Assembly (NCBI RefSeq): GCF_001718795.1
Contig: NZ_CP013437.1
Span: 62,001 to 126,000, forward strand
Reading direction: 5' to 3'
Source of the DNA: Burkholderia latens
GTDB taxonomy: Bacteria; Pseudomonadota; Gammaproteobacteria; Burkholderiales; Burkholderiaceae
DNA length: 64,000 bases
A program made the translations under genes and the position numbers. How positions within the stretch are numbered: the first letter of the stretch is position 1; each line of letters opens with the position of its first letter. The notes below the pieces were generated by a model. It was not told the DNA's origin. It did not search any database and saw only the letters and a program-made list of their open reading frames with translations. Shown in pieces: positions 2,477 to 15,068 of this stretch.

Positions 2477-4033
2477 TCAGTGCCCGCCGGCCGCTATCCC
2501 GCCGCCGCTGCCCTTGACCGGCCGGGTGAGCCAGACCAGCGGAATGATACCGACGAAGATGATCGACGACACCCAGAAGATGTCGTTCAGCGCGAGCATC
2601 GCGGCCTGCGCGTTCAGCGAGCGTTCGAAGAAGGCCGTGGCCTGATCCACACCGACGCCGAGCATCGCCTGGAGCTGCGCGACGGCACTCGTGTAGGTCG
2701 GGTTGTTCACGCTCGTTTGCTCGGCGAGCCGCGCATGATGCAGGATCGTCCGGTCGTTCCATCCGGTCGCGATCAGCGACGTGCCGACGCCGCCCGCGAA
2801 CACGCGCACGAAATTCGACAGCCCGGCGGCCGCCGGAATCCGGTCGGGCGTCAGGCCGGACAGGATGATCGCGGTCAGCGGCGTGAAGAAGAGCGCCATC
2901 GGAATGCCTTGCAGCAAGGTCGGCAGCACCAGCGTATACGGGTCGACGCCCGTCGTGTAATGCGAGCGCATGAAAAACACGCCCGCAAAGCCGACGAAGG
3001 CCAGCGTCGCGAGCACCCGCGCGTCCGACTTCGGCATGATCTTCGCCATCAACGGTGCCAGCAGCACGGCGAAGATCCCGAGCGGCGCCGTCACGAGCCC
3101 GGCGTCCACCGACCGATAGCCGAGATAGCCCTGAATCCATTGCGGCAGGATCACGAGGTTCGAGAAGAACACCGCGTATGCAACCGAGATCGCAATCGTG
3201 CCGCCGCGGAAATTGCGCACCGCGAACAGGCGAATGTCGACGATCGGGTTCCGCTCCGTGAGCTCCCAGATCAGGAAAAACACGAAGCTGACGGCGGCGA
3301 TCACGGCAAGCGTGCAGATCACGGGCGAGCTGAACCAGTCGAGATCCTTGCCCTTGTCGAGCATGATCTGCAGCGTCGCGACCCATACGATCAGCGACAT
3401 CAGGCCGACCTTGTCGATAGGAATCTTGCGCACCTGTGTCTCGCGGTCGCGATAGATCATCCACGTGATGCCCGCCGCGAACAGGCCGACCGGAATGTTG
3501 ATGTAGAAGATCCACGACCAGCTGTAGCTGTCGGTGATCCAGCCGCCCAGCGCGGGACCGGCAATCGGGCCGACTGTCGCGGTCATCGACCAGAGCGCGA
3601 GCGCGGTCGAGCTTTTCTCCTTCGGATACGAACCCAGCAGGATCGCCTGCGAAAGCGGAATCAGCGGCCCCGCCACGGCGCCCTGCAGGACGCGCGCAGC
3701 GAGCAGCACGAGCAGGTTCGGCGCGACGCCGCACAGCCACGACGAGAACACGAACAGCACGATCGCGGCCACGAACAACCTGATCTGCCCGACGCGCTGC
3801 GTGAGCCAGCCCGTCAGCGGAATCGCGACGGCATTGGCCGCCGAGAACAGCGTGATCACCCACGTGCCTTCGTCGACGGATACGCCGAGGTTTCCCGAGA
3901 TGGTCGGAATCGCCACGTTGGCAATGGACGAATCGAGCACGTTCATGAACGTCGCGAGTGCGACGGCGAGCGTCGCAAGGACGAGCTTGCCACCCGTCAG
4001 CGGCGGCGGTGCGGGTTGCGTTGAGGAATTCAT
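2477..4033 (-). CDS. EmrB-type MFS drug transporter (DHA2, 14 TM)
   Basis: 518 aa. Inner-membrane H+-antiporter of the DHA2 family, the pump subunit of an EmrAB-NodT type tripartite efflux system. The N-terminus leads into FMNVLDSSIANVAIP, a DHA2 motif (D in TM1), followed by GWLTQRVGQIRLF (loop 2-3 motif A). About 14 hydrophobic segments are readable. The start is the ATG after the basic upstream region; a longer open frame upstream encodes low-quality Arg-rich sequence and was rejected. It is the third gene of a leftward operon after the OMF and EmrA genes, 103 bp downstream of EmrA. Substrates cannot be inferred. There is no MarR-type regulator nearby. Confidence 0.92.
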   Translation of the reverse strand: MNSSTQPAPPPLTGGKLVLATLAVALATFMNVLDSSIANVAIPTISGNLGVSVDEGTWVITLFSAANAVAIPLTGWLTQRVGQIRLFVAAIVLFVFSSWLCGVAPNLLVLLAARVLQGAVAGPLIPLSQAILLGSYPKEKSSTALALWSMTATVGPIAGPALGGWITDSYSWSWIFYINIPVGLFAAGITWMIYRDRETQVRKIPIDKVGLMSLIVWVATLQIMLDKGKDLDWFSSPVICTLAVIAAVSFVFFLIWELTERNPIVDIRLFAVRNFRGGTIAISVAYAVFFSNLVILPQWIQGYLGYRSVDAGLVTAPLGIFAVLLAPLMAKIMPKSDARVLATLAFVGFAGVFFMRSHYTTGVDPYTLVLPTLLQGIPMALFFTPLTAIILSGLTPDRIPAAAGLSNFVRVFAGGVGTSLIATGWNDRTILHHARLAEQTSVNNPTYTSAVAQLQAMLGVGVDQATAFFERSLNAQAAMLALNDIFWVSSIIFVGIIPLVWLTRPVKGSGGGIAAGGH

Positions 4034-4136: not shown

Positions 4137-5456
4137 TCAGCTTGCGCGCTGCGCGGTGTCGCGCGCATCGCGCGCGACCCTTGCGTCGCGCTTGCCGGAA
4201 GCCGCCGGCGCGCCAGTTTGCGCCGCCGCATGCTCGCCGACGACGTTGCGCGCGATGATCTTCTCGATCTCGGCATCCGCCTGTGCGCCGTATTCGGCAA
4301 ACACGTCTGTGCGATACGACGTGTTGATCGCCGCACCGAGCTGCGGGCCCGTGTCGTCGCGCGTATCCACGTCGACATCCATCGACAGTCCGATACGCAG
4401 CGGATGCGCGTCGAGTTCCTTCGGGTCGAGCTGGATGCGCGCGGGCAGGCGCTGAACGATCTTGATCCAGTTGCCCGTTGCGTTCTGCGCGGGCAGGCTC
4501 GCGAATGCGCTGCCCGTACCCGCGGAGAAGCCGACCACGCGGCCGTGATACTTGACCTTTCCGCCGTACACGTCGGCCGTCAGCGTGACGGGTTGACCGA
4601 TGCGCATGTTGCGCAACTGGCTTTCCTTGTAGTTTGCGTCGACCCATACGCCGTCGAGCGGCACGATCGCCATCAACGGCGTGCCGGGCGACACGCGCTG
4701 GCCGACCTGAACCGAACGCTTCGCGACGTAGCCGGTGACGGGCGCGGGCAACACGTTGCGCGCGTAGGCCAGATACGCGTCGCGCACCTTCGACGCGGCC
4801 GCCTGCACGTTCGGGTGCTGATCGATCGTCGTGCGATCGGTCAATGCGCGGTTGGCCTCCGCCTGTCGACGCGCGGCGTCGAGCGCGGCCCGCGCGGCCG
4901 CCACGGTGTCGCGCGCGTGCGCGATGTCTTCCGCTGACACGGCCCCCGTATCGGCAACGGCCGCGCGACGACGCAGGTCGTCCTGGGCACGGACGAGATC
5001 GGACTGCTTCTGCGCGACGTTCGCCGCGTACAGATCGTCGTTCACGTAGAGACTGCTCACCTGGCGCACGGTCTGGCCCAGCGCCGCCTCGGCGTTGCCG
5101 AGCGCGACTTTTGCGTCGGCGGCGTCGAGCGTGACGACAGGATCGCCCGCCTTCACGATCTGTGTATCGTCGGCGTTCACCGCGACGACGGTACCCGCCA
5201 CCTGCGGCGTCAGCTGCACGAGATTGCCGCTGACGTACGCGTCGTCGGTCGATTCGTGGTAACGCGCGAACGTCAGGTAGTACGCGGCGTACGCAATCGA
5301 CGCCGCCACGACCGTCACGCCGAGCAGCGCCAGCAGCAGCCGGCGGCGGCGCGGCGCGTCTTCGCTTGCGACATCGTCGCCGCCCGACGGCGACGTATCA
5401 CGATTCGCGCGGGGGGCGTCGGCCGGCTTGTGTACCGGCGGATCGATTTCGCTCAT
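4137..5456 (-). CDS. EmrA-type membrane fusion protein (HlyD family)
   Basis: 439 aa periplasmic adaptor that bridges the MFS pump and the outer-membrane factor. It has an Arg-rich cytoplasmic start and one TM segment at about 45-65 (LLLALLGVTVVAASIAYAAYY). The signature ESTDDAYVSGN follows, then a split biotinyl-lipoyl domain around a long alpha-hairpin (about 115-215), and a beta-barrel with VDANYKESQLRNMRIGQPV. The start ATG at 5456 has GGAGAATTGAA immediately upstream; the 27-codon extension before it is not protein-like. The C-terminal tail after about residue 375 is long and charged. It lies 34 bp downstream of the OMF gene and is co-transcribed with it. Confidence 0.92.
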   Translation of the reverse strand: MSEIDPPVHKPADAPRANRDTSPSGGDDVASEDAPRRRRLLLALLGVTVVAASIAYAAYYLTFARYHESTDDAYVSGNLVQLTPQVAGTVVAVNADDTQIVKAGDPVVTLDAADAKVALGNAEAALGQTVRQVSSLYVNDDLYAANVAQKQSDLVRAQDDLRRRAAVADTGAVSAEDIAHARDTVAAARAALDAARRQAEANRALTDRTTIDQHPNVQAAASKVRDAYLAYARNVLPAPVTGYVAKRSVQVGQRVSPGTPLMAIVPLDGVWVDANYKESQLRNMRIGQPVTLTADVYGGKVKYHGRVVGFSAGTGSAFASLPAQNATGNWIKIVQRLPARIQLDPKELDAHPLRIGLSMDVDVDTRDDTGPQLGAAINTSYRTDVFAEYGAQADAEIEKIIARNVVGEHAAAQTGAPAASGKRDARVARDARDTAQRAS

Positions 5457-5490: not shown

Positions 5491-7458
5491 TCAGCGCGCG
5501 GCGGCGGCGGGCACGGCCGATACGCGCGCATCGGCATGTGCCGATGTGCCCGCGCCCGCGAATGACGTGTCGACGAAGCCGCCGCCCAAAGCGGACGCGA
5601 GCGCGATCTGACGGTCGCGGCGGTCCATGCGCAGATTCGCGACGCGCTGATCGGCGGAAAGTGCGTTGACGTCGGCGTTCAACACCGTCAGTTGATTCGT
5701 GAGACCGGCCTTGTACTGCGCGAGCGCCAACGCGGCCGCCTTCAGCGCGGCCTGCTGCGCCGTCTGCGCATCGACCAGCTCTGCGTCCGTTGAACGCACG
5801 TCGGCGACTTGCGTCGCGACCTCGCTCAGCGCGGTGACGAGCGCCTGGTTATAGGTCGCGACGGCAAGATCGAAGTCCGCGTAGCGCCCCTTCAGTTGCG
5901 CGCGTAGTGCACCGGCGTCGAAGATCGGCAGATGAATAGCCGGTCCGACCGACGCGGTGCGGCTCGCCGCCGTCAGGAAGCGGCCGAAGCCGAACGCATC
6001 GAGTCCGATCGCGGCGCTCAGGTTGATGTCCGGATAGAACTCGGCCTTCGCTTCCTTCACGCCGTGCGCGAGCGCATCGACACGCCACCGGGCAGCCACG
6101 ATGTCGGGGCGCCGGCTCACGAGATCCGCGGGCAGATTGTCGGGCACGCGTACCTCGTTGCCGGTGCCGAGCGTCGGGCGCCCGATCCCCAGGCCGCGAT
6201 CGGGACCGGCGCCGAGCAGCGCGGCAATCTGGTAGCGCGCCGCGAGGATCCGGCCGTCGAGCGATTTCAGCAACGCACGGCTCGTCGCGAGATTGGCGCG
6301 GGCGGTCTCCCGCTCGACCTGCGTATCGAGCCCGGTCGCGATTCGGTCCGCGGCGATGCGATCGATCTGCTCGCGTTGGGCGATCTCCCGTTGCGCGATG
6401 TCATGCAACAGGAACAGGCGTGCAAGTTCGTTATAGGTGCGTGCGATCGCCGTCGTAAGCGCCAGCCTGACCGCTTCCGCCTCGGCGCGGCTCGCCTGCA
6501 GGCCGGACACCGACGCGCGCAGCGCCTCGCGTTTCTTGCCCCAGAGGTCAAGCTCGTACGAAGCGCCCAGGATGCCGCGGTTCTCCGTCTGCCATGACCC
6601 GCCATACGGCGGCGGCACGAGCGCCGTACCGGAAAACTGCTGGCGGGTGAGGGCGTAGCTGGCATCGACGCGCGGCATCGTCCCCGCTCGCGCGGATTCG
6701 CTGTAGGCCTGCGCGGCCGCCACGCGTGCGCGCGCCTGATCGAGCGTCGGGCTGCGCTCGAGCGCCTCGTCGATCAAGGACTTCAACTGGCCGTCACCGA
6801 ACTGATCGACCCAATCCGCAGTGGGCCAACGGCCTTGCTCGAACGGCAGGCTCCATTGCGTCGCGTAATGCTGCGGATCGGTCATCGCCGCATCGCCGTG
6901 AATGCCGGCGTAGTTCGCGCATGCCGACAACATGCCCGCGACGACCACCGGCACCCCGGTCTTGAGTGTGCGCGACGCATGCCGCCACGCGATCGAAAGC
7001 ATGACCGTCGTGCGTCCCTTCGCGAGCGCGATCAAGGTTCGGATGCCGATCCATGGATTCAGCAAACCGCGGCGCACCTGCTCGCTGTGACCGACACCAC
7101 ACACGCACCAACTGCAGAAGTGCTCGCAGTTGTTCGTCAGAAGCCGATAGCGATCCTCGCCGACGCGCGACCAGGCGCGCTCGACGACAGCGATTCCTGT
7201 ATAGATGGCATCCGGCTCCGCCTGAACTTGGATGGTGTTGCTCGCCGCGAAGCGACGCAATGAGATGCATTCCACCGGAGACCGCCTCGCGGAGCAATCA
7301 AAGCCGCCATAGTGAACAACCAGTCCATCTCCAACGTAGATGCCGTGATGCGCGTACCCGTCGCGCTCGCTGACGAGATGCGCGCCTATGTCGATGTCGG
7401 GTTCCGTACGAATCGGTTCGCGTGAAAGCGTCGGCCAACCGATATTCAAAGTGTCCAT
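5491..7458 (-). CDS. LRAT-domain protein fused in frame to a NodT-type outer-membrane efflux lipoprotein
   Basis: One 655-aa open frame holds two normally separate proteins. Residues 1 to about 148 are an LRAT/NlpC-like thiol domain: histidines in AHHGIYVGDGLVVHYGG (H37/38 and H49) and the nucleophile motif NNCEHF (C111). Residues from M153 (ATG at 7002) read as a complete NodT lipoprotein precursor: basic start, hydrophobic stretch, lipobox MLSAC with Cys180, then two OEP repeats. No stop codon separates them. AAGGGA lies 12 nt before ATG 7002, so separate translation of the OMF (5491..7002, 503 aa) is possible; lipidation would require that start or cleavage. The OMF forms the outer-membrane channel for the EmrA/EmrB proteins encoded downstream. 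Start 7458 is the best Met for the LRAT part. Confidence 0.85.
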   Translation of the reverse strand: MDTLNIGWPTLSREPIRTEPDIDIGAHLVSERDGYAHHGIYVGDGLVVHYGGFDCSARRSPVECISLRRFAASNTIQVQAEPDAIYTGIAVVERAWSRVGEDRYRLLTNNCEHFCSWCVCGVGHSEQVRRGLLNPWIGIRTLIALAKGRTTVMLSIAWRHASRTLKTGVPVVVAGMLSACANYAGIHGDAAMTDPQHYATQWSLPFEQGRWPTADWVDQFGDGQLKSLIDEALERSPTLDQARARVAAAQAYSESARAGTMPRVDASYALTRQQFSGTALVPPPYGGSWQTENRGILGASYELDLWGKKREALRASVSGLQASRAEAEAVRLALTTAIARTYNELARLFLLHDIAQREIAQREQIDRIAADRIATGLDTQVERETARANLATSRALLKSLDGRILAARYQIAALLGAGPDRGLGIGRPTLGTGNEVRVPDNLPADLVSRRPDIVAARWRVDALAHGVKEAKAEFYPDINLSAAIGLDAFGFGRFLTAASRTASVGPAIHLPIFDAGALRAQLKGRYADFDLAVATYNQALVTALSEVATQVADVRSTDAELVDAQTAQQAALKAAALALAQYKAGLTNQLTVLNADVNALSADQRVANLRMDRRDRQIALASALGGGFVDTSFAGAGTSAHADARVSAVPAAAAR

Positions 7459-7912
7459 CGCAAGCCTCCGATTGCGTAGGTGTGCCGCATGTCGCGTCAC
7501 CGAGGGGTTGCCTGCATGCGCAAGCCGAAGATCGGCCCGCACTGCCGTGTCGTCATACTAGGATCCGCACGCATGTGCAGGTAGACCCGCATCGGAACAC
7601 TTTCCCGTTCCTCATCGGCACCAATCGGCTGCACCCGCGGTCGTGCAACGTTCGACGCGAGCGACACCGGCCGTTCTCGCCGCATTGGTGCGTAGCGCGC
7701 AACACCATGCATCCCAGACCGATCTAGTCCGGCGCCCTGTCTTTGCCTAGCATGCAAGAGCGCTGGGGCCATCGTTCGGATGGCGGTCGTGGGGAACGGC
7801 CTGCAGGCAAGCGCTGCACCAATGCGCCGAGTCGCTTCGGGAAACGACGCGCCGCCCCGATACGCAGGGCTCGGAACACTCGCGTCGATCAATACAAGCA
7901 ACCGGGAGGCAT
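7459..7912. promoter_or_regulatory. Divergent intergenic region between LRAT-efflux and Ohr operons
   Basis: 454 bp between two divergent operons, so it must hold both promoters. I could not pick out a convincing -35/-10 pair or a palindromic OhrR/MarR-type operator. No protein-coding frame here looks real. Confidence 0.4.
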
Positions 7913-8413
7913 ATGGAGAACGAGAGGTTGCAACCTCCGCCGTTGACACTGCTCGACAAATACCGCGGGCGAGAATTCGCCGCGCTCTACACGACCACGG
8001 TCACCGTCTCCGGTGGCCAGTCCGGTCATGGCCGCGCATCGGGCGTCGCACGATCCGATGACGGCTGTCTCGCCCTCGATCTGCGATTGCCGACCGAACT
8101 CGGCGGGCCGGGCGGCGGGACCAACCCCGAACAGCTTCTCGCCGCCGGCTACGCCGCCTGCTTTCACGGCGCGCTAAGCCTGATCGCGCAACGCGATCGG
8201 ATCGACATCCGGGAAACGACAGTCGCCGTCGAAGTGGCGTTCGGTCGCGATCCGGTTGATGGCGGCTATGCGCTGACGGCCAACATCACCATCCGCATGC
8301 CGGGCGTGGACCGGCAGGTCGCGGAGCGTCTCGTTCGCGACACGGAGCGCCTGTGTCCCTATTCGAAGATGGCACGGCAGGGAATCTGCAGTGTCGTCGC
8401 CGTGTCGGCGTGA
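7913..8413 (+). CDS. Organic hydroperoxide resistance protein (Ohr/OsmC family)
   Basis: 166 aa thiol peroxidase that reduces organic hydroperoxides. Both family cysteines are visible: GYAACFHGAL (peroxidatic Cys) and CPYSKMAR (resolving Cys), with the Ohr/OsmC fold signature GTNPEQLLAAGYA before the first. It is about 20-25 residues longer at the N-terminus than typical Ohr (LQPPPLTLLDKYRG), yet GGGAGG sits just before the chosen ATG. First gene of a rightward oxidative-defence set, followed 148 bp later by an AhpD-like gene and a cupin. No OhrR repressor gene is in the window. Confidence 0.9.
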   Translation: MENERLQPPPLTLLDKYRGREFAALYTTTVTVSGGQSGHGRASGVARSDDGCLALDLRLPTELGGPGGGTNPEQLLAAGYAACFHGALSLIAQRDRIDIRETTVAVEVAFGRDPVDGGYALTANITIRMPGVDRQVAERLVRDTERLCPYSKMARQGICSVVAVSA

Positions 8414-8561
8414 TTGGTGCCGAAGCGGCAACATAGTGCGCACGTTCCCGGCCCTACCCGCCCGCGGGACCCGCGATTACGATGGTTGCCAGGCAGGTCG
8501 TGCGATGCATCGCCATGCTCACGACCACTCGAGCAGCTTCAACCAATCAGGACAACGGATC

Positions 8562-9041
8562 ATGACGCAACGTATCAATTATTTTCAGCAATCGCCGGAA
8601 CTGACCAGGAAACTCGTCGAACTCGACGGGCTGCTTCAGAAGACGGCGATCGAGGTTCCGGTCCGCGAGCTCGTCGAGATTCGCGCGTCGCAGCTCAACG
8701 GCTGCGCGTTCTGCGTCGACATGCACATCAAGATGGCGAAGATCCACGGCGAGCGCGAACTGCGCGTGCATCACGTTGCGATCTGGCGCGAGTCGCCGCT
8801 GTTTTCGCCGCGCGAGCGCGCCGCGCTCGAATGGACCGAGGCGCTGACGCATCTCTCGTCGCACGGCGTGCCGGACGATCTCTACGAGCGCGTGCGAGCC
8901 CATTATTCCGAGCAGGAACTGTCGGATCTCACCGTCCTCGTGGGTGCGATCAACTGCTGGAACCGGCTGAACGTCGCGTTCCGCATCGTGCCCGGCTCGT
9001 TCGACACGATGTTCGGGCTCGACAAGGCCAACCTGGAGTAA
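8562..9041 (+). CDS. Carboxymuconolactone decarboxylase / AhpD-like alkylhydroperoxidase
   Basis: 159 aa cytosolic protein. The motif NGCAFCVDMH is the AhpD-type CxxC followed by His, which supplies the redox dithiol and proton relay in peroxide reduction. The preceding VRELVEIRASQ matches the conserved glutamate-containing helix. Length is right for the single-domain AhpD/CMD subfamily. ATG at 8562 follows an AGGA-type ribosome site and starts the conserved N-terminus (QRINYFQQSPE). The cupin start lies 4 bp after its stop, so the two are translationally linked. Role in peroxide handling is inferred from the motif and from the Ohr gene upstream. Confidence 0.92.
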   Translation: MTQRINYFQQSPELTRKLVELDGLLQKTAIEVPVRELVEIRASQLNGCAFCVDMHIKMAKIHGERELRVHHVAIWRESPLFSPRERAALEWTEALTHLSSHGVPDDLYERVRAHYSEQELSDLTVLVGAINCWNRLNVAFRIVPGSFDTMFGLDKANLE

Positions 9042-9045
9042 CGAC

Positions 9046-9450
9046 ATGAAACGCATCGTGCTCGCACTTGCACCGCTTGCGTTGTCGCTGCTGATGCCCG
9101 TTCAGCTGGTCGTCGCCGCACCGCAAGCCAAGGTCACGCAACTGACGACGGAACCGTTGCCCGAGTATCCGGGCAAGGAAGTCGAGATGATCGTCGTGGA
9201 TTATCCGCCCGGCAGCGTCGACCCCATCCATCGCCACGACGCACACGCATTCGTCTACGTGCTCGACGGCAGCATCGTGATGGGCCTAAACGGTGGAAAG
9301 ACGGTCACGCTCCACGCCGGCGACACGTTCCATGAAGGCCCGGAAGACGTGCACACGGTCGGACGGAACGCTAGCAGCACGAAGCCGGCAAGATTCGTCG
9401 TGTTCCTGATCAAGAACAAGGGGGCGCCGGTCCTCACTCCGGTGAAGTAG
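9046..9450 (+). CDS. Periplasmic cupin-domain protein
   Basis: 134 aa. Residues 1 to about 24 form a Sec signal peptide ending VVAA. A single cupin barrel follows: motif 1 HRHDAHAFVYVLDG (two metal-binding His) and motif 2 HAGDTFHEGPEDVH. Small secreted cupins of this kind often accompany AhpD-like genes in Burkholderia. Enzymatic activity is unknown; metal binding is inferred from the His residues. GGAGTAACGAC upstream of the ATG overlaps the previous stop, showing coupling. Its last 15 residues occur again at 10908-10955 as a detached duplicate. Confidence 0.88.
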   Translation: MKRIVLALAPLALSLLMPVQLVVAAPQAKVTQLTTEPLPEYPGKEVEMIVVDYPPGSVDPIHRHDAHAFVYVLDGSIVMGLNGGKTVTLHAGDTFHEGPEDVHTVGRNASSTKPARFVVFLIKNKGAPVLTPVK

Positions 9451-12336: not shown

Positions 12337-13818
12337 CTAACCTTCCCGAAGCCACTGGACGAGCAAGCCTGCCGATGCGTAGCCGCGCAGCGTAGCGACG
12401 TAGCCATCGAATCGATAGGCCACTTCGCTCACCCGATTGTTGTAGTAATCGCTCTCCGCAATCAGCACGTCGAGCAGCGTGCGCCGTCCAAGGTGATACC
12501 ACTGATCGAAAAACGCCTTGCGCACCCGATCCGACTCCACCGACAGAGCACGGTACTGGTTCGCGCGTGCGCCAAACGACCGGGCGTCCTCGTCCGCAGT
12601 TCGCACTTGATACTCGAGATCGAGACGCGTTTGCTCGACCTGGCGCCACCCGGCCAGCGCCCTGAATGCCGCGGCGTCGGTCGCGGCAGTCGCAGCACCG
12701 CCCGTGAACGCGTTCCAGCTCAACGTCAGCATTGTTTGCCATGGCATCCTGCGCCCCTGCACGTCATGCCCCGTACTGGCGCTGACGACCCAGTTCAGTT
12801 GCGGTTTTCTTGACGCGCGCACCGCGTCGCGATTCATATCGGCAGCCGCAGCCTCCGCGCGCGCCTGCTGAAGTCGCGGATTGTTGTCGAGCGCTGCCAT
12901 CAGGCGCTCGAGATTGGCCGGTTTGAGCGGCCAGGTCGACGTCGCGGGCGTCGGCACGGGCTGCTGTCCCACCAGCTTGCGCAAATTCAGCTCGGCGTCG
13001 CGGCATTTGGCAAGCGCGGCATCTCGACTCGCCTGCGCCTGTAGCAGGTGCGCCTCTGCCTGCGTCAGCTCGCTGGCACGGCCGCGATCGGTCGCAACGA
13101 TAGCCGCGAGCATGCCGACCAGCTGAGTCATCCGATCGACGAACTGCTGACTGAGCGCTGCGATATTGCGTTGTTTCGCGAGTTCCGCGAGCGTGGTCGA
13201 CACCTGATACGCGGAGTCCTCCATTTGCGCGATGTAGCGCTCCTGATTCGCATTCGCGAGCTCTCTGCGGCTCGCGATCTGCTTCGCGTTGCGCCCCCAG
13301 TCAAACAGCGTCGTCGTGAGGTCTGCACTGATCGAGTTGCCCGGATCATATCCATTGCCTGCATTCGAACCGAACTGCATCGAACGCGTCCGGCCGTTGA
13401 GTTGAAGTTGGGGCCAGCGGGCCGCCTTCGCCTGGCTGACGTCCGACTGAGCGGCCTGATACTCCGCATACAGCCCGCGCACCTGCGGACTGACGTCCAT
13501 AGCCGCTTGGGCAGCGGCATAGAGCAACTGCCGTAACTGAGCCTCGGTAGCGAAGGATCGCGCTCCCGTGGCCGGGATCTGCGGGCCGGGAACGGCAGGC
13601 GTTTCTCCCTGACCGGCTTCCTCCGGCATATCGCGCAGCGGCGCGTGGGTTGTCGTTGGGCTCGCCGGCGTCAAGATGACCGGCGGCATGTCGGCTGCCC
13701 TGGCCGGTTGCCATGCGATCGCGGCGATCGGTATCGCGAGTGCGACTACAGCCGACACCGGCACGCGCCGGCGCGCAAACTCGACGCGGGCGCGTGCAAG
13801 ATTTCGACGATCACTCAT
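12337..13818 (-). CDS. TolC-family outer-membrane channel of the type I secretion system
   Basis: 493 aa. Signal-peptide-like start (VSAVVALAIPIAAIAWQPARA), a Pro-rich linker, then two OEP repeats with long helices (VRGLYAEYQAAQSDVSQAKAARWPQ; NPRLQQARAEAAAADMNR) and the terminal segment RRTLLDVLIAESDYYNNR. It would form the trimeric exit duct for the ABC/HlyD pair encoded immediately upstream. ATG at 13818 is 2 bp from the HlyD stop, so translation is coupled. The larger open frame that continues upstream is a shadow of the HlyD gene. Confidence 0.9.
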   Translation of the reverse strand: MSDRRNLARARVEFARRRVPVSAVVALAIPIAAIAWQPARAADMPPVILTPASPTTTHAPLRDMPEEAGQGETPAVPGPQIPATGARSFATEAQLRQLLYAAAQAAMDVSPQVRGLYAEYQAAQSDVSQAKAARWPQLQLNGRTRSMQFGSNAGNGYDPGNSISADLTTTLFDWGRNAKQIASRRELANANQERYIAQMEDSAYQVSTTLAELAKQRNIAALSQQFVDRMTQLVGMLAAIVATDRGRASELTQAEAHLLQAQASRDAALAKCRDAELNLRKLVGQQPVPTPATSTWPLKPANLERLMAALDNNPRLQQARAEAAAADMNRDAVRASRKPQLNWVVSASTGHDVQGRRMPWQTMLTLSWNAFTGGAATAATDAAAFRALAGWRQVEQTRLDLEYQVRTADEDARSFGARANQYRALSVESDRVRKAFFDQWYHLGRRTLLDVLIAESDYYNNRVSEVAYRFDGYVATLRGYASAGLLVQWLREG

Positions 13819-13820
13819 GT

Positions 13821-15068
13821 TCAACGCTCCCGGAACGCTTCGCGAACTTTGAATATCGGCTTCAACAAATAGTCGAGCACTGTCTTTTCGCCGGTACGGA
13901 TATCGACCGTTGCCTGCATCCCTGGAAGTATCGGCAAGCGCTTGCCCGCGATGTGCAGCGCGTTCGTGTCGGTCTCGACCATCAGCCGGTAGTACGTCGC
14001 GTCCGGCCGCCCTGTGGCCGCGCGTTGTTCGTCTTTCACCGTGTCCGGCCCCACGCTGACGACGCGCCCATGAAGTCCACCGTAGATCGCGAAATCGTAC
14101 GCACTGACTTTCACCAGCGCCGGCATTCCGGGACGCAGGAACGCGACATCGGAGGGCTTGATGCGCGTTTCGACCAGAAGCGTGTCGTCGACCGGCGCGA
14201 TTTCCATAATGTGTTCGCCCGGTTGCACGATCGCGCCCGGCGTGTGGATCCGCAGGTTCTTCACGACACCGCGGCTTACTGCGACGATGTCGGTGCGCTC
14301 CAGGACGTCGGCGCGACCGACGAGCGATTCGCTCGTTTGCGCGAGTTCCGGCTCCAGTCGCGTCAGCTCCGCGCCGGCATCTGCCCGATAGCGACTCCTG
14401 CGCTCGACGATTTGAGCGTCGATATCGGCCGCCTGTCGCCGCATGCGCAAGATTTCGACCTCCGAGATCAAGCCTTTCGCCGCGAGCGGCTCCGACATCG
14501 CAAGCTCGCGCGACACGAGCGTCCGGCTCTGCGTCAACGCAGCGACGCTTTCGTCGAGCGCCCGCCGACGAGCACGATAGGCCGCCGTCTCTTGCCGGAC
14601 AAGATCCGGTTCCCGCGCAACTTCGTAGGGAAACGCGAGCGGAATGCCGTATGCCTCGGCGCGCAGCCGAGCGACAGTCGCCTTCAGGCCGACTGCCTTT
14701 GACCGCAATTCGCGATAACTCGATTGCGCGCGGGTCGGATCGATCTTGGCCAACAACTGCCCTTTCTCGACGAGATCGCCCTCGCGTACGGCGATTCGCT
14801 CGACGATCCCGCCTTCCAGGCTCTGTATGACCTGCTCCCGACTCTGAGACACCACGGTCGCGTCCCCGCGCGTAACTTCTTCGACACGCGCGAAGTGCGC
14901 CCATGCCAACCCGATACCGAGCACGGCGGCAACGACGTACAGCACGGACTGAGCACCGGCCGACGAACGCACCAAGAGCGCCTCACGAATGTCGTTCATG
15001 AAAGCCGCGTCCTGTACCAGCAATCGCGGCTCGGTCTTGCGCCGCCGCAACATCGCTCCAACTTTCAT
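13821..15068 (-). CDS. HlyD/LapC-type adaptor of the type I secretion system
   Basis: 415 aa. A short basic cytoplasmic end is followed by one TM helix (VLYVVAAVLGIGLAWAHFA) and a lipoyl half-motif (REQVIQSLEGGIVERIAVREGDLVEKGQLLA). Then come a long coiled-coil (about 110-260), the second half (VVKNLRIHTPGAIVQPGEHIMEIAP) and a beta-barrel. The membrane-proximal SLEGGIV is typical of HlyD/LapC adaptors. ATG 15068 is preferred because GGAGG lies 7 nt before it; ATG 15074 is too close to that site. The start lies just after the stop of the ABC gene (15071-15073). Confidence 0.9.
   Translation of the reverse strand: MKVGAMLRRRKTEPRLLVQDAAFMNDIREALLVRSSAGAQSVLYVVAAVLGIGLAWAHFARVEEVTRGDATVVSQSREQVIQSLEGGIVERIAVREGDLVEKGQLLAKIDPTRAQSSYRELRSKAVGLKATVARLRAEAYGIPLAFPYEVAREPDLVRQETAAYRARRRALDESVAALTQSRTLVSRELAMSEPLAAKGLISEVEILRMRRQAADIDAQIVERRSRYRADAGAELTRLEPELAQTSESLVGRADVLERTDIVAVSRGVVKNLRIHTPGAIVQPGEHIMEIAPVDDTLLVETRIKPSDVAFLRPGMPALVKVSAYDFAIYGGLHGRVVSVGPDTVKDEQRAATGRPDATYYRLMVETDTNALHIAGKRLPILPGMQATVDIRTGEKTVLDYLLKPIFKVREAFRER

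What the first reader, a model, noticed from the sequence alone, without database searches (positions are those of the whole stretch)
5491..7458. LRAT-type thiol domain fused in frame to a tripartite-efflux outer-membrane lipoprotein
A complete LRAT/NlpC-like domain (His pair plus NCEHF cysteine) runs without a stop into a NodT lipoprotein, whose own Met, signal sequence and lipobox sit internally at residues 153-180. Either the ancestral LRAT stop codon was lost and the lipoprotein is made from an internal start, or a new bifunctional product exists. LRAT-fold enzymes act on acyl groups, so a lipid- or acyl-modifying activity tied to an efflux operon would be new to my knowledge.
Basis: partly seen in the sequence, partly recalled or inferred. 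Interest (0 to 1): 0.75.

Follow-up and report, generated by a model that had tools for sequence, protein, structure and literature searches.

The report
Acyltransferase-headed efflux lipoprotein, one conserved gene
A fatty-acid-handling enzyme domain is joined in one gene to the signal sequence and body of an outer-membrane efflux channel; the joined form is kept in a group of related bacteria, and a similar plan (enzyme first, then an internal export signal, then an exported protein) appears with several other partners.

Summary
One 655-codon frame (5491-7458, minus) carries an LRAT/PLAAT-type domain with intact His-His-Cys residues, a linker, an internal lipoprotein signal (Cys180) and a NodT channel; emrA and emrB follow. 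The fused frame is in 13 loci read as DNA (9 of the Burkholderia clade including the window, 4 of other Burkholderiaceae) and 16 protein clusters. LRAT and NodT are under purifying selection; the linker drifts in sequence, yet shows no stop or gap in seven species. The LRAT start has a strong ribosome site in 9 of 9 Burkholderia-clade loci. The ancestral NodT ATG survives in 11 of 13 fused loci, mostly with weak sites; the window has lost it but has another ATG with a moderate, distant site, so separate NodT synthesis is not excluded. LRAT domains are also followed in frame by signal peptides and exported proteins in other records (caspase-like, PagL, cytochromes). Best reading: one precursor, exported at its internal signal and cut there, leaving LRAT on the cytoplasmic face of the inner membrane. 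No experiment was done; the substrate is unknown.

The parts
5491..7458 (-). Fused LRAT-NodT coding frame, 655 aa plus stop
7465..7469 (-). GGAGG ribosome-binding site of the LRAT start
   Evidence: present in 9 of 9 fused Burkholderia-clade loci
7093..7395 (-). LRAT (PLAAT-like permuted NlpC/P60) domain, residues 22-122; H37/H38, H49, C111
7003..7092 (-). Linker, residues 123-152; shortened by 47 codons relative to the 702-aa forms
   Evidence: codon alignment
7006..7008 (-). Site of the ancestral NodT start codon (29 codons before Cys), now ACG
7015..7020 (-). AAGGGA, a possible ribosome site for the internal ATG (pairing -5.0, spacing 11)
6922..7002 (-). Internal lipoprotein signal peptide, Met153 to residue 179, lipobox LSAC
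5494..6921 (-). NodT outer-membrane factor, mature from Cys180 (cleavage inferred)
4137..5456 (-). emrA, periplasmic adaptor next in line
   Evidence: start inferred from the conserved GGAG..ATGAGCGAAATC
2477..4033 (-). emrB, DHA2 MFS permease next in line (start inferred from the listed frame)
7594..7611 (-). Inverted repeat GGAAC-8-GTTCC upstream, possible operator

Best explanation
The gene makes one precursor from the LRAT start codon. SHOWN by sequence: no stop or frameshift, an LRAT domain under selection, a strong LRAT ribosome site, conservation. INFERRED: the LRAT domain has no signal of its own, so it folds in the cytoplasm. The internal lipoprotein signal engages Sec; Lgt modifies and signal peptidase II cuts at Cys180. 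NodT goes to the outer membrane to serve EmrAB, and the LRAT domain stays on the inner face of the inner membrane, held by the signal peptide remnant or linker, much as PLAAT enzymes are held by a C-terminal membrane helix (recalled). Its likely chemistry is thiol acyl transfer or phospholipase A on phospholipids or on the pump's substrate; that step is a guess. Internal initiation may add free NodT.
For: Fused in 7 of 65 Burkholderia genomes, plus the window and a B. pyrrocinia plasmid annotated as one CDS, plus 4 other Burkholderiaceae loci. The 9 Burkholderia-clade fusions and two LRAT-loss remnants form one clade, 100/99. dN/dS in 7 species: LRAT 0.23, NodT 0.15, linker 1.06. Linker: 0 gaps in 150 nt in 7 species (before that script stopped); 3.8-4.0 stop gains expected without selection, P(none) about 0.02; the region upstream of the same genes has many indels. 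GGAGG at the LRAT start 9 of 9 (-9.5 kcal/mol) against -3.0 at the ancestral NodT ATG in the 7 that keep it. L199: LRAT core missing in frame; its best start candidate for NodT is the LRAT ATG (-4.2) against a GTG (-2.2) and a TTG (-3.3). LRAT-signal-exported protein recurs: 27 of 32 hand-picked fusions outside the clade pass a strict signal test, against 0 of 61 interior windows and 6 of 75 solo LRAT proteins; 10 of 12 LRAT-caspase proteins have no Met in the 45 residues before the signal core, and 2 of 12 have a lipobox instead of an AXA-like site.
Against: No protein data. The ancestral NodT ATG survives in 11 of 13 fused loci. In the window a new ATG has pairing -5.0 at spacing 11, L001 has a TTG at -5.7, L125 an ATG at -7.9; 11 of 13 fused loci have some internal ATG, GTG or TTG with pairing of -4.5 or better, including L192 with -11.9, though most lie over 40 codons before the Cys. 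A 150-residue cytoplasmic domain before a signal may slow export. The linker's amino acids are not conserved. LRAT is absent in G036 and its core in G017, so it is dispensable there. P of 0.02 is modest alone. Seven relatives keep the genes separate.
Confidence: 0.55

Rival explanations
1. Two products: LRAT translation runs through, but functional NodT comes mainly from an internal start, and the fusion only couples their translation.
For: Ancestral NodT ATG kept in 11 of 13 fused loci; its ribosome site (-1.9 to -3.0) is about as weak as in the separate genes (-2.4 to -3.1). Stronger internal sites within 35 codons of the Cys in the window (-5.0), L001 (TTG, -5.7) and L125 (-7.9).
Against: Window: ancestral ATG is ACG; L001: TTG. 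L199 most likely reads NodT from the LRAT start, although a weak GTG is possible. Coupling alone would not need an open, in-frame linker.
Confidence: 0.3
2. Uncleaved bifunctional protein: LRAT stays attached to NodT, as a signal-anchored inner-membrane protein or otherwise.
For: Continuous frame; no cleavage has been shown.
Against: Lipobox found in 16 of 16 clusters of this clade; NodT works in the outer membrane, which a folded LRAT domain could hardly reach. Lipobox and AXA-like sites interchange in the caspase fusions, which suggests cutting.
Confidence: 0.1
3. Chance open frame or error with no biological meaning.
For: Chance frames of this size occur in this DNA; linker dN/dS is 1.06.
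Against: 13 fused loci without stop or frameshift; LRAT dN/dS 0.23 with no other stop in which LRAT could end.
Confidence: 0.05

Closest known systems
PLAAT/HRASLS and LRAT enzymes (human PLAAT3 4fa0/7zom, HRASLS2 4dpz)
   Same: Same permuted NlpC/P60 fold (4fa0: Foldseek E 7e-8, TM 0.80 by target) and His-His-Cys residues; recalled: membrane-held by a C-terminal hydrophobic helix
   Different: Here the hydrophobic segment after the domain is a predicted cleavable signal peptide of another protein
LnsA of the S. aureus lipoprotein N-acylation pair LnsAB (PMC7387801; abstract passage and other passages seen)
   Same: A permuted NlpC/P60 protein, with PLAAT/HRASLS among its best matches, that acts on lipoproteins
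   Different: LnsA is predicted to have its own signal peptide and needs LnsB; here LRAT has no signal of its own and is fused in front of a lipoprotein
EmrAB-type MFS tripartite efflux with a NodT/OprM-type lipoprotein
   Same: Gene content nodT-emrA-emrB and family matches
   Different: No LRAT head in the usual systems (recalled); 20 of 30 NodT loci examined had no LRAT match
Bradyrhizobium fbcH cytochrome b/c1 polyprotein cut at an internal signal peptide (recalled; not found)
   Same: Bacterial precursor cut by signal peptidase into two functional proteins
   Different: Different proteins; signal peptidase I rather than II

Membership tests
LRAT-like permuted NlpC/P60 enzymes | Profile match above the curated cut-off | tested here: met
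   78.2 bits against 24.3
LRAT-like permuted NlpC/P60 enzymes | His-His ... NCEHF cysteine | tested here: met
   H37/H38, H49, C111 invariant in 27 rows
LRAT-like permuted NlpC/P60 enzymes | Fold | tested here: met
   AlphaFold2 core, blocks of mean pLDDT 67-95; the ten matches with E <= 0.001 are PLAAT/HRASLS/LRAT structures
LRAT-like permuted NlpC/P60 enzymes | Acyltransferase or phospholipase A activity | not testable with these tools
   needs enzyme assay
NodT outer-membrane factor lipoprotein | TIGR01845 match above cut-off | tested here: met
   389.6 bits against 210.05
NodT outer-membrane factor lipoprotein | Signal peptide with lipobox | tested here: met
   LSAC at 177-180, internal, by pattern and hydropathy only
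EmrAB tripartite operon | EmrA and EmrB genes on the same strand next door | tested here: met
   EmrB passes the DHA2 efflux cut-off (TIGR00711, 472.5 against 230.2); EmrA's best matches fall below the cut-offs (PRK15136 440.3 against 563; TIGR00998 371.6 against 390.8)
Signal-peptidase-cut bacterial polyprotein | One frame with an internal signal peptide between two domains | tested here: met
Signal-peptidase-cut bacterial polyprotein | Demonstrated cleavage into two proteins | not testable with these tools
   needs proteomics
LnsA-type lipoprotein N-acylation | Own signal peptide | tested here: not met
   No hydrophobic stretch before the LRAT domain, by eye on the translation
LnsA-type lipoprotein N-acylation | LnsB partner | not tested
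   LnsB was not searched for

The most novel reading that the evidence does not exclude
A general, undescribed protein plan: a cytoplasmic PLAAT-like thiol acyltransferase placed in front of a Sec signal peptide, so that the signal peptide of the exported partner doubles as the enzyme's C-terminal membrane anchor and signal peptidase releases the pair in equal amounts on opposite sides of the membrane. Partners include NodT channels (of more than one type), PagL, caspase-like proteins, cytochromes, epoxide hydrolases and lipoproteins. The LRAT enzyme would condition membrane lipid, or the cargo, at the site of export.
Probability: 0.4. Interest if true: 0.85.

Novelty: new variant of a known kind. 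Interest (0 to 1): 0.7.

Why it matters
Bacterial LRAT proteins have little known function (recalled; PMC7387801 says the functions of the related bacterial YaeF/YiiX-like permuted enzymes are poorly understood, passage). A conserved physical link to an efflux channel, and links to other exported proteins through a signal peptide, give a handle on where they work and with what. It would also add a kind of bacterial precursor cut into two proteins by signal peptidase, and it shows that annotation as plain 'efflux transporter outer membrane subunit' can hide an enzyme.

Tried and rejected
Chance frame or sequencing error: rejected by conservation. A general LRAT-efflux link across all LRAT proteins: rejected; of 53 loci of other LRAT types only 2 had even a distant EmrB-like match within 6 kb, so the link belongs to the METL-type subfamily. 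Fusion confined to one genome: rejected. Lipoprotein N-acylation as in LnsA: kept only as a lead, wrong topology. Linker as a conserved functional peptide: rejected, dN/dS about 1. LRAT-caspase genes in 399 Burkholderiales genomes: no listed match spans both parts (earliest start at residue 89 of 471, with a stop inside, at most 4 candidates scored per genome, limit 1e-40), so that set rests on protein records. A class-wide search with a PagL-type LRAT gave 3 of 369 genomes. Literature: LRAT with NodT 0 papers; the listings showed no such fusion in titles or abstract starts; only open-licence PMC papers are held.

The signal test used fusions picked by hand. P0022 and P0170 (no signal) were but not among the 48; P0144 and P0151 lacked the searched motif; glycine-rich LRAT proteins without a second domain (such as P0165-P0168, P0171-P0174) and P0024 were left out of both. 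Five of the 48 failed the strict test (P0019, P0143, P0145, P0147, P0148); all five pass a looser one. Met was scored, not GTG/TTG. The search listed 120 of 257 matches.

Full report
What is there. The minus-strand frame 5491-7458 encodes 655 residues without a stop. Residues 22-122 match LRAT (PF04970) and 172-627 match NodT (TIGR01845). H37/H38, H49 and C111 are invariant in 27 aligned sequences. The nearest solved structures are human PLAAT/HRASLS enzymes, by sequence (4dpz, E 6.6e-9) and by fold of an AlphaFold2 model of residues 1-185 (mean pLDDT 73.7; 4fa0, E 7e-8). By eye there is no hydrophobic stretch before the LRAT domain, and the signal is internal, ending in the lipobox LSAC at Cys180. 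EmrA- and EmrB-like genes follow. A public cluster of 9 sequences, identical over residues 1-200, is labelled Burkholderia pseudomallei by its source; I take that only as a label.

It is conserved. In the Burkholderia genus search, 30 of 65 genomes have some LRAT match and 7 of 65 have this fusion. With the window and a B. pyrrocinia plasmid copy annotated as a single CDS that is 9 loci. The protein search lists 16 fused clusters of this kind, P0002-P0017, of 643 to 702 residues.

Relatives show the history. Seven loci (L121, L122, L186-L190) keep LRAT as its own gene, ending with TAG or TAA after codon 166, then nodT-emrA-emrB. In 5 of 7 the two genes are in frame with no other stop. L192 has a glutamine codon at the stop's place. 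Five loci have LRAT-emrB-nodT-emrA (L131, L194-L197). One locus fuses LRAT to a different NodT, 38% identical (L127). A tree of 42 NodT proteins puts the 9 Burkholderia-clade fusions and two LRAT-loss remnants in one clade (100/99); the fused label needs 4 changes on the tree and at least 3 by strongly supported branches. By hand tally, 28 of 35 METL-type LRAT loci from sampled genomes have a NodT, EmrA or EmrB relative within about 6 kb, against 2 of 53 for other LRAT types (distant EmrB matches). The 7 without: two each in G004 and G296, one each in G336, G242 and G069, the last on a 4.3-kb contig.

Translated as one unit. In the 7 Burkholderia-clade species with the 702-residue form, dN/dS is 0.23 in LRAT, 0.15 in mature NodT, 0.47 in the signal peptide and 1.06 (0.76-1.52) in the linker. 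LRAT is therefore selected as protein, and its frame has no stop other than NodT's. The linker has 78 variable sites of 150 and no gap (printed before that script stopped). From its codons, 3.8-4.0 stop gains are expected without selection; P(none) is about 0.02, modest alone. The 250 bases upstream of the same genes show many indels in the 9 aligned loci. The one large linker change is a 47-codon in-frame shortening shared by the window and L001.

Start sites. GGAGG stands six bases before the LRAT ATG in 9 of 9 Burkholderia-clade loci (-9.5 kcal/mol), stronger than in the separate-gene loci (-1.8 to -5.8). At the ancestral NodT ATG, kept in 11 of 13 fused loci, the best pairing is -1.9 to -3.0, about as in the separate genes (-2.4 to -3.1). 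Against a clear-cut picture: in the window that ATG is ACG, but a new ATG two codons later has -5.0 at spacing 11; in L001 it is TTG with -5.7; L125 has an ATG 34 codons before the Cys with -7.9; and 11 of 13 fused loci have some internal ATG, GTG or TTG at -4.5 or better, L192 even -11.9, though most lie over 40 codons before the Cys. I had no control for how often such sites occur by chance. In L199 the LRAT core is missing and METLN is joined in frame to the NodT signal; its candidates are this ATG (-4.2), a GTG 22 codons before the Cys (-2.2) and a TTG (-3.3), so NodT most likely reads from the LRAT start. In L198 only a remnant, the linker and NodT remain, so LRAT can be lost.

A wider plan. 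Three protein searches return LRAT domains followed in frame by other exported proteins. Pfam confirms LRAT first and then PagL, epoxide hydrolase, cytochrome c, cytochrome P460, caspase, glycoamylase, AlgH-like, thioredoxin-like or alpha/beta hydrolase domains in 9 of 10 proteins tested; in the tenth, P0057, the EipA match is just below cut-off. Other NodT proteins occur too (P0018, P0020, P0107, P0146, P0164). A strict signal test on hand-picked fusions finds a signal in 43 of 48 (27 of 32 outside P0002-P0017), against 0 of 61 interior windows and 6 of 75 solo LRAT proteins. Two further fusions had none, P0022 and P0170. The 12 LRAT-caspase proteins are the cleanest: 10 have no Met in the 45 residues before the signal core, and P0156 and P0160 carry a lipobox where the others have an AXA-like site. 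These are mostly metagenome protein records; I could not read their DNA, and GTG or TTG starts are not excluded.

How it probably works. One precursor is exported at the internal signal, cut at Cys180, and leaves LRAT at the inner face of the inner membrane. The precedent I recall is the fbcH cytochrome b/c1 polyprotein; my search did not find it. Xu et al. [quoted passage not shown] LnsA, a permuted NlpC/P60 protein, is needed for lipoprotein N-acylation in S. aureus (PMC7387801, passages), but it is predicted to have its own signal peptide. PMC12994826 (passages) places LRAT among permuted lipid-acting NlpC/P60 clades. The substrate here is unknown; modification of the pump's substrate or of nearby phospholipid fits the LRAT-first gene orders best.

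What remains open: whether the precursor is really cut, how much free NodT is made, and what LRAT does. I found no paper describing an LRAT-NodT fusion (and the listings); the library holds open-licence papers only.

Noticed in passing
window 7594-7611 (-): Inverted repeat GGAAC-gggaaagt-GTTCC with a TAGTAT box about 34 bases on. In one search it is seen in the 6 of 9 loci whose 250-base upstream stretch reaches it, with one-base departures in L001, L002 and L003; a possible operator.
   Followed up: partly
window 7913-9450 (+): Divergent frames that by comparison with the annotated B. pyrrocinia plasmid look like an Ohr-type peroxiredoxin, a carboxymuconolactone decarboxylase-like and a cupin gene; the plasmid has the same three, also on the strand opposite to the efflux operon.
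   Followed up: partly
window 12337-14904 (-): An 855-codon open frame whose C-terminal part looks like a TolC-type protein but whose first part overlaps an HlyD-like frame: a likely chance N-terminal extension, a useful contrast to the LRAT-NodT frame.
   Followed up: no
L121, L122, L186-L190, L200, L201: The stretch before separate nodT genes, around CTGATAGGCCAGAAAATG, is strongly conserved at the DNA level with or without an LRAT gene upstream.
   Followed up: no
P0129, P0136, P0154-P0163: LRAT-signal peptide-caspase protein records, some named as Burkholderiales MAGs, in which AXA-like and lipobox sites interchange.
   Followed up: partly
L123, L124, L126: METL-type LRAT genes lie about 1.8 kb from a convergent EmrA-like gene and a distant NodT, a further efflux neighbourhood.
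   Followed up: no
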